Positions 27,184 through 31,027 of a stretch of DNA of 38,966 nucleotides are shown here, piece by piece (positions within the stretch are counted from its first letter, which is position 1; each line of letters starts with the position of its first letter). The stretch is from positions 1 to 38,966 of the forward strand of contig NZ_CAJYPS010000005.1 in assembly GCF_913777145.1 (NCBI RefSeq). Direction: 5' to 3'. The notes beneath the pieces were generated by a model, which saw only the letters and a list, made by a program, of their open reading frames with translations, was not told where the DNA came from and made no database searches. The translations under genes and the position numbers were made by a program. The DNA comes from an uncultured Roseateles sp. GTDB taxonomy: Bacteria; Pseudomonadota; Gammaproteobacteria; Burkholderiales; Burkholderiaceae_C.

Positions 27184-27663
27184 TCAGCGACCGCGATGGT
27201 CGTGATGATCGTGGCGGTCGTCGCGGCGATCGTCCCAGCGATCGCGGTCCCGGCCCGGACGGTCATCCCGCCAGTCGTCGCGCCGGCCGGGGCCGCGCGG
27301 GCCGCGGTCGTCGTAGCGGCGGTCTACGTGGGCGTGGTACCAGCGGTCCTCGACGAAATACACCGGCACGCCACAGGCGCCGTAGGCGCGGCAGTGGTGG
27401 TGCCAGTCGCGGCGATGGCCCGGCGGCACCCACAGGTAGACCGGCTCGCGCGCGACCGCGCGGCCTATCAGCACCGGCTGCGGCGCGATCAGCACCGGCT
27501 GCGGATAGTTGCCGATGTCCACGCGACCGTAGACCCCTGGCTGGCTGAAGGCGATGGACACGCCCACGTCGCCGGCTTGCGCGGGCTGGGCGCCCAGCGC
27601 CAGCAGGCTCAAGGCCAGGCCGGCCAGGGAGCCGAGGCGGGACGGGGTGGTGGGGCGGGTCAT
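27184..27663 (-). CDS. Secreted Asp/Arg/His-rich protein of unknown function
   Basis: A 159-aa protein with a clear signal peptide (LAGLALSLLALGAQPAQAG, cleavage about 30). The mature N-terminus DVGVSIAFSQPGVYGRVDIG is followed by repeated PQPVLI, then YLWVPPGHRRDWHHHCRAYGACGVPVYFVE with two Cys, a likely structured core. The last 45 residues are low-complexity Asp/Arg/His, possibly metal- or polyphosphate-binding. AGGAG lies 7 nt before the ATG. A TGTAGGACG-N46-TACTAG element stands upstream, as for the receiver and BON genes. Function unknown; it looks like an envelope stress protein by its company. Confidence 0.85.
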   Translation of the reverse strand: MTRPTTPSRLGSLAGLALSLLALGAQPAQAGDVGVSIAFSQPGVYGRVDIGNYPQPVLIAPQPVLIGRAVAREPVYLWVPPGHRRDWHHHCRAYGACGVPVYFVEDRWYHAHVDRRYDDRGPRGPGRRDDWRDDRPGRDRDRWDDRRDDRHDHHDHRGR

Positions 27664-27704: not shown

Positions 27705-27765
27705 CTAGTAAACGGTCCGCGCCGCGGCCCGGTTGTCGGGGCGGGCGCGGCGGCCGTGTAGGACG
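27705..27765 (-). promoter_or_regulatory. TGTAGGACG site with -10-like TACTAG (secreted-protein gene)
   Basis: On the minus strand CGTCCTACA (27765-27757) is followed by 46 nt and then TACTAG (27710-27705). The site lies 93 nt before the start codon at 27663. The same 9-mer and 46-nt spacing are found at two other genes in this cluster. Confidence 0.65.
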
Positions 27766-27773
27766 GGACGCCG

Positions 27774-29156
27774 TCAGTCGGCGGGCGCGTCGCTCGGACC
27801 GGGGGCCTCGTCCTGCCGTGCGGGCAGGCGGGCCAGCACCAGCGTGCCGGCGCCGGGCGCCGAGTGCAGCTCCAGCTGGCCGCCCAGGCTCTCGATGCGG
27901 TAGCGCATGCCCAGCAGGCCGTGGTGGCCGGGCGGCACGCCGCCGGGGTCGAAGCCGCGGCCGTTGTCGCGCACGCTGAGCTGCAGGCCCGCGTCGCTTT
28001 CGCCCAGCGCCACGCGCACCTGGGTGGCGCCGGCGTGGCGCAGAACATTGGTCAGCGCCTCCTGCACCAGGCGGTAGAGCGCCAGTCGGCCGGCGTCGTC
28101 GGTGCGCACCTCGCTGAGCTCCTGGGTCAGCTGCAGGCCGCTGCGCTGCGCGAACTCGCGCAGGAAGATCTCCAGCGCCGGCGTCAGGCCCAGGTTGGCC
28201 AGCGCCGAGGGCCGCAGGTCTTCGATGATGCGGCGCTTCAGCGCGATGCCCTGGTCGATCAGGCCGCTCATGTGCTGCAGCCGCTCGTCAAGCTCGGGCA
28301 TGCCGTTGCGGGTGGTGCGGCGCACGCGGGCCACGTCCAGCTTGGCCGCGGTGAGCAGGGCGCCCAGCTCGTCGTGCAACTCGCGGGCCAGGTGGGCGCG
28401 CTCGTCCTCGCGCACGGTCTGCAGGTGGCGGGCCAGCTCGGTCAGGTCGGCCGTGCGGTGGGCGACCTCGGCGTCTAGCCGGTCGCGCTCCAGCCGCAGC
28501 TCGATCGCGTGCAGGCGGCGCTCGGTCAGCAGCGCCTCGTTGCGGCGCAGGAACACGATCAGCCCGCCCAGCGCCAGCAGGGTCAGGCCCAGCACGCCCA
28601 GGCGGCCCAGCAGCAGCGAGCGGTACACCGCGTTGCGCTCGATGACGATCTGCGCGAGTTCGTGGCGGTCCAGCTGCTCGACCGCCTCGCGCACGGCCTG
28701 CATCTTCTCGCGGCCGATGTCGGACTCCATCAGCACGCGCCAGGCGGTGGTGGAGCCGTCGCGGTACTCGGATACCACCAGCTGCAGCTCGGACAGCTTC
28801 TCGTCGGTGCGCCTGCTGGCCTCGGCGACCAGCGCCTCCCATTCGGAACTGGCGTACTGGCTGCGCAGACGCTGCAGCACCGCGGGCAGCTCGCGCGTGG
28901 CCAGCTGCAGCGGCGCGAGGTAGTCGTCGCGCCCGGTCAGCAGGTAGCCGCGCTGCGCGGTCTCGGCATCGGTCAGCAGCTCGCGCAGCTTGAGCCCTTC
29001 GTTGCGGGCGTTGTGGCGGGCCTGGACGTTGTCCAGCGCGCGGTCGGCGAGCTGGAAGGCGATCTCGTTGACCGCCAGCACCGCCAGCGCGGCCACGGCG
29101 GCGGCGGCCAGCGCAAGGCCGCGGCGCCGGCCCAGACGATCCAGCAGCGCGCTCAC
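27774..29156 (-). CDS. CHASE3 sensor histidine kinase (NarX/HisKA_3 type)
   Basis: A 460-aa membrane kinase from the GTG at 29156. A first helix (about 10-30) is followed by a CHASE3 sensing domain with NEGLKLRELLTDAETAQRGYLLTG and DDYLAPLQ. A second helix (about 180-200), a coiled-coil linker, and HisKA_3 with phospho-acceptor His261 in LARELHDELGALLTAAKLD come next. The HATPase has VQEALTNVLRHAGA, VRDNGRGFD and GLLGMRYRIESLGG. A GTG at 29192 overlapping the previous gene is another possible start. It begins 4 nt after the receiver gene stop. HisKA_3 kinases usually pair with LuxR-type regulators; the one at 30182 is the likely partner. Confidence 0.93.
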   Translation of the reverse strand: MSALLDRLGRRRGLALAAAAVAALAVLAVNEIAFQLADRALDNVQARHNARNEGLKLRELLTDAETAQRGYLLTGRDDYLAPLQLATRELPAVLQRLRSQYASSEWEALVAEASRRTDEKLSELQLVVSEYRDGSTTAWRVLMESDIGREKMQAVREAVEQLDRHELAQIVIERNAVYRSLLLGRLGVLGLTLLALGGLIVFLRRNEALLTERRLHAIELRLERDRLDAEVAHRTADLTELARHLQTVREDERAHLARELHDELGALLTAAKLDVARVRRTTRNGMPELDERLQHMSGLIDQGIALKRRIIEDLRPSALANLGLTPALEIFLREFAQRSGLQLTQELSEVRTDDAGRLALYRLVQEALTNVLRHAGATQVRVALGESDAGLQLSVRDNGRGFDPGGVPPGHHGLLGMRYRIESLGGQLELHSAPGAGTLVLARLPARQDEAPGPSDAPAD

Positions 29157-29160
29157 GGCG

Positions 29161-29577
29161 TCAGCTGGCCAGCGAGGCGGTACTGGCCCCACCGGCCGGG
29201 CGGCCCTGGGCCAGCTGGGCGCAGTGGGTGATCAGGTCGTCGAGCTCATGGCTCTTGTCAAACACCCGGGCGGCGCCCAGGCTAAGGCAGCGTCGGCGCA
29301 TCTCGTCGGTGGCGTAGTTGGTCAGCACCACCAGCTCGCCGGCCGTGCCCAGTTCGCGGGCGGCTGCCAGCACGCCCAGGCCGGAGCCGCTGCGCAGGAA
29401 GACGTCCACGATCAGCAGGTCGGCGCCGGCCGGGCTCTGCTTGAGCCAGCGCACCGCGCCGGCCTCGTCGCCCACGGTGCCCACCACCTCCACCTCGGCC
29501 AGCTCCTCGAGCGTGGCGATGAGGTTCTCGAGGATGACGGGGCTGTCTTCGACGATGAAGGCTTTCAGTGCAGGCAT
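29161..29577 (-). CDS. Single-domain response regulator (receiver only)
   Basis: A 138-aa CheY-like receiver without an output domain. The acidic pocket is Glu10-Asp11 (AFIVEDSPVI), the phospho-site Asp58 (LLIVDVFLRSGSG), the switch Thr is in VVLTNYA, and the conserved Lys in ARVFDKSHELDDLI. The frame continues upstream, but the ATG at 29577 gives the normal receiver N-terminus. It is translated just before the CHASE3 kinase (4-nt gap) and probably tunes the phosphate flow between that kinase and the LuxR-type regulator. Its upstream region carries TGTAGGACG-N46-TACTTA. Confidence 0.93.
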   Translation of the reverse strand: MPALKAFIVEDSPVILENLIATLEELAEVEVVGTVGDEAGAVRWLKQSPAGADLLIVDVFLRSGSGLGVLAAARELGTAGELVVLTNYATDEMRRRCLSLGAARVFDKSHELDDLITHCAQLAQGRPAGGASTASLAS

Positions 29578-29609
29578 GGCCCGGCGCAACAGAGCTGCTG
29601 GTGTGGCGT

Positions 29610-29670
29610 TAAGTATCCGACGCTTCCCGACCCGGCGGACCGGTCGGGAGGCGGTTGGCGTTGTAGGACG
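29610..29670 (-). promoter_or_regulatory. TGTAGGACG site with -10-like TACTTA (receiver-kinase operon)
   Basis: Minus-strand CGTCCTACA (29670-29662), 46 nt, TACTTA (29615-29610). The site lies 84 nt before the receiver start at 29577. Spacing and motif match the elements at 27705-27765 and 30058-30118. Confidence 0.65.
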
Positions 29671-29696
29671 AGGGCGCGTCCTGCGCTTTGGGCGCC

Positions 29697-30020
29697 TCAG
29701 CCCGGGCGCACGACGATGTCGTTGTGTACCGTGACCACGCCCGGCGTCGCGCGCGCCAGCTGCTCGGCCAGCGAACGCTCCTGGGCGCTCTTCGCAAAGC
29801 CCGACAGCTGCACCGCGCCCTTCAGCGTCTCGACTTGGATGGCCATGGCGCTGACCGACTCGTGGCTGGCGAACTTGGCCTTGACCCGCGCGGTCAGCGT
29901 CGCGTCGTCCACATAGGCGCCGACGGTCTCCTGGTCGCGCACCACCGCGCAGCCGGTGGTGGACAGCAGCGCGGCCAGGGCGCCGCACAGGCTCAGCGTC
30001 AGCAGGCTCTTCTTCATCAT
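29697..30020 (-). CDS. BON-domain lipoprotein
   Basis: A 107-aa lipoprotein. The signal peptide ends at a lipobox with Cys24 (LLSTTGC). A single BON domain covers about 35-107: DDATLTARVKAKFASHESVS, IQVETLKGAVQLSGFAKSAQE and PGVVTVHNDIVV. BON proteins such as OsmY protect the envelope under stress and bind phospholipid. The start at 30020 has AAGGAG 6 nt upstream; the next codon is also ATG. It has its own TGTAGGACG-type upstream element and faces away from the LuxR-type regulator gene. Confidence 0.92.
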   Translation of the reverse strand: MMKKSLLTLSLCGALAALLSTTGCAVVRDQETVGAYVDDATLTARVKAKFASHESVSAMAIQVETLKGAVQLSGFAKSAQERSLAEQLARATPGVVTVHNDIVVRPG

Positions 30021-30057
30021 GGGATGCTCCTTGGAAGGTGGCCGGGGGCCGGTGCTT

Positions 30058-30118
30058 CCACTATCGGGGCCGGGCCGCGGCACGGGCTTAGGCCGACGGC
30101 GGGCCGCGCTGTAGGACG
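30058..30118 (-). promoter_or_regulatory. TGTAGGACG site between the BON and LuxR-regulator genes
   Basis: Minus-strand CGTCCTACA (30118-30110), 46 nt, then TAGTGG (30063-30058), 89 nt before the BON start. A partial repeat GTCCTGT lies just upstream. On the plus strand the same site is 63 nt before the LuxR-type regulator ATG, with TACGCT at 30149-30154 as a possible -10, so it could serve both genes. Confidence 0.6.
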
Positions 30119-30181
30119 ACAGGACTCGCGGCCCCGCGACGGCGCTGCTACGCTCGCGGCCTTTGACACGCACCTGACACC

Positions 30182-30817
30182 ATGATCCGCATCGGCATCG
30201 TCGACGACCACGCCATCGTGCGCACCGGCCTGCGCCAGTACCTGTCCGATCATGTGGACCTGCGCGTCACCGGCGAGGGCGCCAGCGGCAAGGACGCGCT
30301 GGAGTTGGCGCGCGGCGGCGAGGTGGACGTGCTGCTGCTGGACATCTCCATGCCCGACCAGAGCGGCGTGGATGCGCTGGCCGCGATCAAGGCGCGCTTC
30401 CCGGACCTGCCGGTGCTGATACTCAGCGGCTTCCCGGAGGCGCACTACGCGACCACGCTGCTGCGCCAGGGCGCCAGCGGCTATCTGAACAAGGAATGCG
30501 ACCCCGAGGAGATCGCCGACGCGATCCGCGTGGTGGCGCGGGGGCGGCGCTACATCAGCCCGGCCGTGGCCGAGCAGCTGGCGGAGTCGGTGGTGGGCGG
30601 CGGCGTGGAGAAGCCGGCGCACGAGGCGCTGTCGGAGCGCGAGCTGCAGGTCTTTCTGCGCCTGGCCCAGGGCGAGACCGTGGGCCATATCGCCGATGCG
30701 CTGTTCCTCAGCGTGAAGACCGTCTCCACCTACCGCACGCGGGTGCTGGAGAAGCTGGCGCTGCAGACCAACAGCGACCTGACCTACTACGCGCTGAAGA
30801 ACGGCCTCATCCAGTAG
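30182..30817 (+). CDS. LuxR/NarL-family response regulator
   Basis: A 211-aa two-domain regulator. The receiver has IGIVDDHAIVR, phospho-acceptor Asp54 in LLLDISMPDQSG, a Ser at the switch position (LILSGFPE) and Lys in GYLNKE. The output domain is a LuxR helix-turn-helix: LSERELQVFLRLAQGE, then HIADALFLSVKTVSTYRTRVLEKL. The layout resembles the UvrY/RcsB/NarL group. It lies divergent from the BON gene, within 2.5 kb of the HisKA_3 kinase, and the three TGTAGGACG sites nearby are its most likely targets (inference). Confidence 0.94.
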   Translation: MIRIGIVDDHAIVRTGLRQYLSDHVDLRVTGEGASGKDALELARGGEVDVLLLDISMPDQSGVDALAAIKARFPDLPVLILSGFPEAHYATTLLRQGASGYLNKECDPEEIADAIRVVARGRRYISPAVAEQLAESVVGGGVEKPAHEALSERELQVFLRLAQGETVGHIADALFLSVKTVSTYRTRVLEKLALQTNSDLTYYALKNGLIQ

Positions 30818-30820
30818 GCT

Positions 30821-31027
30821 TCAGCGCGCGCCGGCGGCGTCGGCCTGCGGCGTGGGCTCGGTGTCGGCCAGCACCCAGGGCAGGGCGGACTCGTAGCCCA
30901 GCTCATGCTCGGCGCTGCCGGCGCCGGGGCGGCCGCCCAGACGGCGCCACCAGTGTCCCCAGCGCGGGCGGTGGGCCGCTGGTGCGGCGGTGGCGGGCGT
31001 GGGCAGCGGGCGGGTGGCATCGACCAT
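30821..31027 (-). CDS. Small protein of unknown function (68 aa)
   Basis: A 68-aa protein, Pro/Ala/Arg-rich at first with a Trp-rich patch (RPRWGHWWRRLGG), then ELGYESALPWVLADTEP. AGGAG lies 6 nt before the ATG at 31027, which is the main support. No signal peptide or known domain is seen. It converges on the LuxR-type regulator with 3 nt between the stops. An 11-bp dyad CCCAG-A-CTGGG lies about 20 nt upstream of the ribosome binding site. Confidence 0.6.
   Translation of the reverse strand: MVDATRPLPTPATAAPAAHRPRWGHWWRRLGGRPGAGSAEHELGYESALPWVLADTEPTPQADAAGAR

What the first reader, a model, noticed from the sequence alone, without database searches (positions are those of the whole stretch)
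27705..30118. Three TGTAGGACG sites with identical 46-nt spacing define a small signalling/envelope regulon
TGTAGGACG occurs at 27757-27765, 29662-29670 and 30110-30118 and, in non-coding DNA, nowhere else that I found in the window. Each lies 84-93 nt upstream of a minus-strand gene (secreted Asp/Arg/His-rich protein; receiver plus CHASE3 kinase; BON lipoprotein). In all three, exactly 46 nt separates the motif from TA(C/G)T (TACTAG, TACTTA, TAGTGG), a plausible -10. Such phase conservation implies an activator bound at a fixed distance upstream. The LuxR-type regulator at 30182, probably phosphorylated by the CHASE3 kinase, is the best candidate, and the third site could also control its own gene. 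I know of no described regulator for this exact motif.
Basis: partly seen in the sequence, partly recalled or inferred. Interest (0 to 1): 0.82.

Follow-up and report, generated by a model that had tools for sequence, protein, structure and literature searches.

The report
Fixed-distance promoter box for stress genes
Three copies of a short DNA box sit at one fixed distance from predicted promoters of neighbouring genes in this Roseateles-like bacterium, and the same box and distance recur before envelope and stress genes of its relatives, where the box is likely bound by the response regulator encoded beside it.

Summary
TGTAGGACG occurs three times in the window, all non-coding. GTCC(T/G)ACA lies exactly 44 nt before a -10-like hexamer at orthologous promoters: receiver 11 of 13, BON 10 of 11, secreted protein 4 of 9. 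Over 483 box-gene pairs in 66 protein families, -10-like hexamers peak 44 nt after an 18-bp box (family-weighted 20.8; mean elsewhere 0.8), with a second peak at 21 nt; 33 families show neither. With assumed start sites the box is centred near -65 or -42. The LuxR-type regulator's own promoter uses the near position in 39 of 81 homologues (0.06 in shuffles). Genes with the box include BON, CsbD, DUF1328, OmpA, ferritin, PRC and Ku. One same-genus genome lacking this regulator keeps a UvrY-like paralogue but has no TGTAGGAC facing a gene start (0 of 28). Geometry matches UvrY/BvgA boxes. Best reading: an undescribed NarL/FixJ-type regulator of an envelope/general-stress regulon and of itself. 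Binding, activation and the kinase link are untested.

The parts
27184..27663 (-). secreted Asp/Arg/His-rich protein gene, predicted target
   Evidence: ORF; no Pfam or NCBIfam match; box kept upstream of 8 of 8 orthologues found in the 12 closest loci, in one or both orientations
27707..27712 (-). predicted -10 hexamer TTTACT of the secreted-protein gene
   Evidence: 44 nt after the half-site; TT(T/C)ACT at 44 nt in 4 of 9 orthologous promoters, TTCCACT (one base more) in two others
27757..27774 (-). box 1, 18-bp frame; strong half GTCCTACA at 27757-27764, other arm degenerate
27774..29156 (-). CHASE3-HisKA_3-HATPase sensor kinase gene
   Evidence: Pfam CHASE3 1.2e-19, HisKA_3, HATPase_c; start by gene caller
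29161..29577 (-). stand-alone receiver-domain gene, first gene of the predicted receiver-kinase transcription unit
   Evidence: Pfam Response_reg; coordinates
29612..29617 (-). predicted -10 hexamer GATACT of the receiver-kinase unit
   Evidence: 44 nt after the half-site; (C/G)ATACT at 44 nt in 11 of 13 orthologous promoters, 43 and 45 nt in the other two
29662..29679 (-). box 2, 18-bp frame; strong half GTCCTACA at 29662-29669; relatives have a nearly complete inverted repeat here (for example CCTAGGACAAGTCCTACA)
29697..30020 (-). BON-domain lipoprotein gene, predicted target
   Evidence: Pfam BON; NCBIfam nearest OsmY, below cut-off
30060..30065 (-). predicted -10 hexamer GATAGT of the BON gene
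   Evidence: 44 nt after the half-site in 10 of 11 orthologous promoters; the eleventh, L020, has the hexamer at 44 nt from a half-site with one changed base
30110..30127 (.). box 3, shared: 44 nt from the BON hexamer and 21 nt from the regulator's hexamer
   Evidence: 9 of 12 close relatives have two boxes 22 bp apart instead
30149..30154 (+). predicted extended -10 (TGC)TACGCT of the regulator gene
   Evidence: 21 nt after the box; same in 7 of 13 group A loci, 22 nt in 5, absent in L011
30182..30817 (+). LuxR-type (NarL/FixJ) response regulator gene, the likely binder of the box
   Evidence: Pfam Response_reg and GerE; best NCBIfam UvrY/SirA/GacA 180 bits, cut-off 280

Best explanation
An 18-bp imperfect inverted-repeat box (strong half TGT[A/C]GGAC) stands at two fixed places, ending 44 or 21 nt before a predicted -10 hexamer, in front of these genes and of envelope and stress genes of related Burkholderiales, and it is likely the operator of the neighbouring UvrY-like response regulator, which would activate them and itself. 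Shown by sequence comparison: the box, its two registers, their conservation at orthologous promoters and across unrelated gene families, and the box at the regulator's own promoter in two Roseateles/Pelomonas groups and in Hydrogenophaga. Inferred: the CHASE3 kinase senses an unknown, perhaps envelope-related signal and phosphorylates the regulator; a phosphorylated dimer binds the box and recruits RNA polymerase from about -65 (class I-like: BON, receiver-kinase, secreted protein, CsbD, DUF1328) or from about -42, next to -35 (class II-like: its own gene), so that regulator and kinase are raised by positive feedback. The stand-alone receiver made with the kinase may buffer or relay phosphate.
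For: Three exact sites, 0.05 expected. Register kept at orthologous promoters: receiver 11 of 13, BON 10 of 11, secreted protein 4 of 9. Register recurs over 66 families: 20.8 family-weighted at 44 nt and 4.85 at 21 nt, mean 0.81 at other spacings; without the three seed families 19.7 of 63 and 4.5. Both orientations of the strong half fall into the same two registers of the 18-bp frame (44 nt: 138 R, 39 F; 21 nt: 25 R, 27 F, of 274 R and 209 F). Box at the regulator's own promoter in 39 of 81 homologues, 0.06 in shuffles, 37 of the 39 in one 44-row group of the tree. Box density in group A 10.3 per kb upstream of the regulator, 2.95 in other non-coding DNA, 0.13 in coding DNA. G012, which lacks the regulator but keeps the UvrY-like paralogue, has 0 of 28 TGTAGGAC copies facing a gene start, against 7 of 37, 6 of 43 and 17 of 39 in G000, G004 and G013. 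The regulator's family fits the box geometry.
Against: No binding, expression or start-site data. 42 of 81 regulator homologues show no such box at their own gene, and box density near the regulator is only 2.9 per kb over all loci L035-L090 (1.27 in other non-coding DNA). 33 of 66 families have no member in either register, including DUF883, the glycine-zipper 2TM and the SIMPL genes. All three window boxes lack a good second arm, and near-perfect palindromes occur in only 2 of 20 genomes. G012 is one genome, also lacks CsbD, and two of its three non-coding sites lie in low-GC DNA where the gene caller found no genes. Ku, PRC and the OmpA protein rest on single promoters in register.
Confidence: 0.78

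Rival explanations
1. The box is real and in register, but it is bound by another NarL/FixJ regulator of the cell, for example the second UvrY-like regulator, and the gene at 30182 is only one of its targets.
For: The genomes hold many related regulators (61-82 matches to NF007018 per genome); the second UvrY-like regulator scores as high as the one at 30182 (178.9 against 180.7 bits in G000).
Against: That paralogue is present in all four genomes tested, including G012, which has no box facing a gene start, and has no box in the 200 nt upstream of its gene in any of the four. The box is at the 30182-type regulator's own promoter in three groups.
Confidence: 0.15
2. The site is bound by a repressor or a nucleoid protein rather than an activator, and the fixed distance reflects repression of RNA polymerase or nucleoid structure.
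For: Sequence alone does not tell the sign of regulation; a box ending 21 nt before the -10 would also reach a -35 region.
Against: The majority register places the box upstream of any -35 (end about -57 under the assumed start sites), where activators act more often than repressors (general knowledge); NarL/FixJ activators such as BvgA use this layout.
Confidence: 0.06
3. Chance: a GC-rich window with three coincidental 9-mers and a spacing chosen after the fact.
Against: The register recurs in 63 families outside the seed families (19.7 family-weighted; other spacings mean 0.78, sd 0.80, 21 nt excepted). The DNA between box and hexamer differs among the three genes and among relatives while the distance stays.
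Confidence: 0.01

Closest known systems
UvrY/SirA/GacA response regulators and their 18-nt inverted repeat TGTAAGNNNNNNCTTACA (PMC4682653, passages seen)
   Same: Same 18-bp frame with TGTA...TACA at the ends and a 6-nt centre; strong and weak halves occur (TGTAGGAGA is quoted there as a partial site); nearest NCBIfam family of the regulator.
   Different: Half-site TGT(A/C)GGAC instead of TGTAAG; the regulator scores 180 bits against a cut-off of 280; predicted targets are protein genes close to their promoters, whereas csrB/csrC sites lie far upstream; no Csr RNA was looked for here.
BvgA of Bordetella (PMC7250471, passages seen)
   Same: NarL/FixJ regulator; Pfha primary site TAAGAAATTTCCTA has the same 14-bp inverted frame as TAGGACNNGTCCTA; dimers spaced 22 bp, proximal dimer abutting -35; the two registers here differ by 23 bp, and paired boxes in relatives lie 22 bp apart.
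   Different: Different half-site, kinase type and predicted targets; multiple bound dimers were not shown here.
RcsB / RcsAB box and the Rcs envelope-stress regulon (box recalled, not from a call)
   Same: Recalled box TAAGAATATTCCTA has the same frame; envelope-stress targets.
   Different: RcsB is a more distant relative (64 bits); no search for RcsC or RcsD was made.
PhyR-EcfG general stress response of alphaproteobacteria (PMC7083833 seen in a search listing only)
   Same: As recalled, its targets include CsbD, BON, PRC, ferritin-like and Ku genes, much as some targets here.
   Different: It works through a sigma factor; here a DNA-binding response regulator with an upstream box is proposed.

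Membership tests
NarL/FixJ (LuxR-type) response regulators | receiver domain plus GerE-type helix-turn-helix | tested here: met
   Pfam Response_reg 7.4e-26 and GerE 8.1e-15
UvrY/SirA/GacA equivalog (NF007018) | score over the curated cut-off of 280 bits | tested here: not met
   180 bits, best of 90 families but below cut-off; none of the 4 genomes searched has a member over it
UvrY/GacA-type operator | 18-bp inverted repeat TGTAAG-N6-CTTACA | tested here: inconclusive
   Same frame, and both arms visible in several relatives; window boxes keep one arm only; near-perfect repeats in 2 of 20 genomes; half-site differs
BvgA-like tandem dimers | further dimers bound every 22 bp down to -35 | tested here: inconclusive
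   Registers 23 bp apart and paired boxes 22 bp apart in 9 of 12 loci; binding not testable by sequence
Rcs phosphorelay | RcsC/RcsD-type hybrid kinase and phosphotransfer protein | not tested
   No search was made; the locus itself has a simple kinase and a lone receiver
cognate kinase-regulator pair (CHASE3 kinase and LuxR-type regulator) | phosphotransfer from kinase to regulator | not testable with these tools
   Only neighbourhood and family fit (HisKA_3 kinase)

The most novel reading that the evidence does not exclude
Burkholderiales of the Sphaerotilaceae and Comamonadaceae run a general stress response not through a sigma factor but through one UvrY-like response regulator, which reads an 18-bp box at two quantised promoter positions (about -65 and -42), switches on CsbD, BON, DUF1328, OmpA, ferritin, PRC and Ku genes, and amplifies itself and its kinase: a two-component counterpart of the alphaproteobacterial PhyR-EcfG response.
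Probability: 0.35. Interest if true: 0.8.

Novelty: new member of a known kind. Interest (0 to 1): 0.57.

Why it matters
Roseateles and Hydrogenophaga carry stress genes (CsbD, BON, DUF1328, Ku) for whose control the paper searches turned up no description. A searchable box with a fixed distance to the promoter gives a directly testable regulon, a named regulator and a candidate sensor. Two registers for one box would also make a clean natural comparison of class I and class II activation by a NarL/FixJ regulator.

Tried and rejected
Near-perfect palindromes (TGTMGGANNNNTCCKACA) match in 2 of 20 genus genomes, so the regulon cannot be listed by symmetric sites; the strong half plus non-coding position was used instead. 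A degenerate one-and-a-half-site pattern in the own genome gave 13 places; from the ORF overlap and gene calls only L123 and L126 looked non-coding or plausibly so. TGTCGGAC alone is too common to help (209 copies; 100 places listed, 30 given as loci). Oligonucleotide search of the literature (64 papers, 20 listed) showed unrelated papers by title. EupR of Chromohalobacter (PMC2964678, passages) was considered because it is an osmotic NarL/FixJ regulator; none of the 12 passages shown gave an operator, so it is not used. The frames of receiver, BON and kinase were wrong and corrected. A PADLOC scan of the regulator gave only a weak hit over its helix-turn-helix. No structure was predicted, since it would not settle binding.

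Bias to keep in mind: loci were picked for the regulator (best 80 of 488), for CsbD and BON families (for BON 30 loci of a longer list) and for the box itself; spacing to a hexamer was no part of any selection. The register count used the window and loci L011-L328; boxes inside called genes, boxes with no gene start within 300 nt, boxes with an opposite gene in between, boxes within 110 nt of a locus end, and repeats of the same 70 nt were dropped before the count. The gene caller is home-made and trained on GC-rich genes. The hexamer pattern was written after seeing the first examples; leaving out their families changes 20.8 to 19.7.
Full report
What was checked. TGTAGGACG occurs exactly three times in the window (27757, 29662, 30110; + strand), 0.05 expected from 100 shuffles. 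The own genome as held (4.39 Mb, 92% complete) has ten copies and 37 copies of the 8-mer TGTAGGAC. The eighth (C27:398754) faces no gene start.

Genes. Coordinates are: secreted protein 27184-27663(-), CHASE3-HisKA_3 kinase 27774-29156(-), stand-alone receiver 29161-29577(-), BON lipoprotein 29697-30020(-), LuxR-type response regulator 30182-30817(+). The regulator's best NCBIfam family is UvrY/SirA/GacA at 180 bits, below the cut-off of 280.

Conservation. In the twelve closest loci (L011-L022) the box TGT[A/C]GGAC or a one-base variant is kept upstream of the regulator, and of the BON, receiver and secreted-protein orthologues found there. At the receiver promoter relatives show a nearly complete inverted repeat, for example CCTAGGACAAGTCCTACA; the window keeps one arm.

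Fixed distance. Anchored on the half-site, a -10-like hexamer starts exactly 44 nt later in 11 of 13 receiver promoters (43 and 45 nt in the other two) and in 10 of 11 BON promoters; in the eleventh, L020, the hexamer is also at 44 nt but the half-site has one changed base. At the secreted-protein gene it holds in 4 of 9; two more have one base more inside the hexamer (TTCCACT), one does not fit, and two have no half-site in that orientation. At the regulator's own promoter the box ends 21 nt before a TACGCT-type hexamer in 7 of 13 loci, 22 nt in 5, and not in L011. In 9 of 12 group A loci two boxes 22 bp apart serve BON and regulator separately; the window has one box in register with both genes.

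General test. Non-coding boxes facing a gene start within 300 nt in loci L011-L328 and the window gave 483 box-gene pairs (274 with the strong half downstream, 209 upstream), grouped by BLAST into 66 protein families. Scanning spacings 5 to 79 nt after the 18-bp frame for a -10-like hexamer (.[AT].A.T or TA...T), the family-weighted count is 20.8 at 44 nt and 4.85 at 21 nt, mean 0.81 at the others, next highest 3.5 at 19 nt. Without the response-regulator, BON and secreted families it is 19.7 of 63 at 44 nt and 4.5 at 21 nt, and 25 of these 63 families have at least one promoter at 44 nt. Strong halves of both orientations fall into the same two registers of the 18-bp frame (44 nt: 138 and 39 pairs; 21 nt: 25 and 27), which argues that the unit is the 18-bp repeat even where one arm is degenerate. 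Against this, 33 of the 66 families have no member in either register. If the hexamer is taken as -12 to -7, the box is centred near -65 or near -42; no start site has been mapped.

Who binds it. Of 81 regulator genes (window plus 80), 39 have a perfect 7-base half-site in an 18-mer ending 20-22 nt (27 at 21) before a -10-like hexamer; 50 mononucleotide shuffles gave a mean of 0.06 and a maximum of 1. In a maximum-likelihood tree 37 of the 39 lie in one 44-row group (support 83/83, midpoint root for drawing); the label needs 9 changes against 27.2 in shuffles. 42 of 81 do not qualify; several are near misses, for example three Ideonella (CGTAGGATTGG[G/A]CCGACA) and Rhodoferax antarcticus (TGTAGGCGCCGTCTTACA). 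Box density per kb upstream of the regulator / other non-coding / coding is 10.3 / 2.95 / 0.13 in L011-L022, 10.8 / 0.93 / 0.12 in L023-L034 and 2.9 / 1.27 / 0.14 in L035-L090. Genome G012, same genus, has no regulator homologue at E<=1e-60 (G019, 83% complete, has none either and was not examined further), and none of its 28 TGTAGGAC copies faces a gene start (25 coding, 3 non-coding), against 7 of 37, 6 of 43 and 17 of 39 in G000, G004 and G013. G012 keeps a second UvrY-like regulator found in all four genomes; it is 45-47% identical to the window's regulator and has no box in 200 nt upstream in any of the four. G012 also lacks CsbD, and two of its three non-coding sites are in low-GC DNA where the gene caller found no genes, so this control is suggestive only.

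Targets. In 12 of 14 genus CsbD loci a box variant (CGTAGGAC) lies upstream; L203 has none in 250 nt, and in L204, the own genome, the script took a neighbouring gene. In register at 44 nt are, as pairs: two CsbD clusters 14 of 20 and 12 of 13, DUF1328 13 of 29, a ferritin-like family 2 of 3, OmpA/glycine zipper 1 of 2, PRC 1 of 1 and Ku 1 of 1. DUF883 (2 loci), the glycine-zipper 2TM family (3) and the SIMPL-like gene (3) carry the box but not the register. These are envelope and stress functions by family name; none was tested.

Literature. UvrY binds an 18-nt inverted repeat, TGTAAGNNNNNNCTTACA (PMC4682653, passages). BvgA dimers bind every 22 bp with the proximal one abutting -35, and the Pfha primary site is TAAGAAATTTCCTA (PMC7250471, passages). 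The present core, TAGGACNNGTCCTA, has the same frame. The searches showed no description of this box or regulon in their listings (several capped at 10-20 of up to 1,349 papers; only the papers named here were opened).

Conclusion. The element and its register are established by comparison. The regulator at 30182 is the best-supported binder. Activation, signal and kinase pairing are inference from position, gene order and protein family.

Noticed in passing
window 30821-31027 (-): Small ORF of 68 aa just after the regulator, ending in ...LGYESALPWVL...; a small ORF with LGYESALPW also occurs in relative L022. Unknown conserved small protein; not in Pfam.
   Followed up: partly
own genome G000: The 8-mer TGTAGGAC is rare: 37 copies against 417 for the same letters read backwards; similar in G004, G013 and G012.
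   Followed up: no
L134 and L135: The only near-perfect palindromes in 20 genomes: TGTCGGAGCCGTCCGACA before a lipoprotein-like gene in G006 and TGTCGGACGGTTCCGACA in G008.
   Followed up: partly
L034, box upstream of Ku: A Ku (end-joining) gene has the box with a GAAAGT hexamer at 44 nt: DNA repair may belong to the regulon; single case.
   Followed up: partly
G000:C7:210752, L269, L272: The box sits between ompR-like and SIMPL-like genes in all three genomes examined, 55-62 nt from the ompR-like start, which would link this regulon to osmotic control; in the own genome CACAAT lies 21 nt after the box.
   Followed up: partly
L217, L218, L221: A second BON lipoprotein family has a repeat TGTCGG-N6-CCGACA with CAAAGT at 44 nt.
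   Followed up: partly
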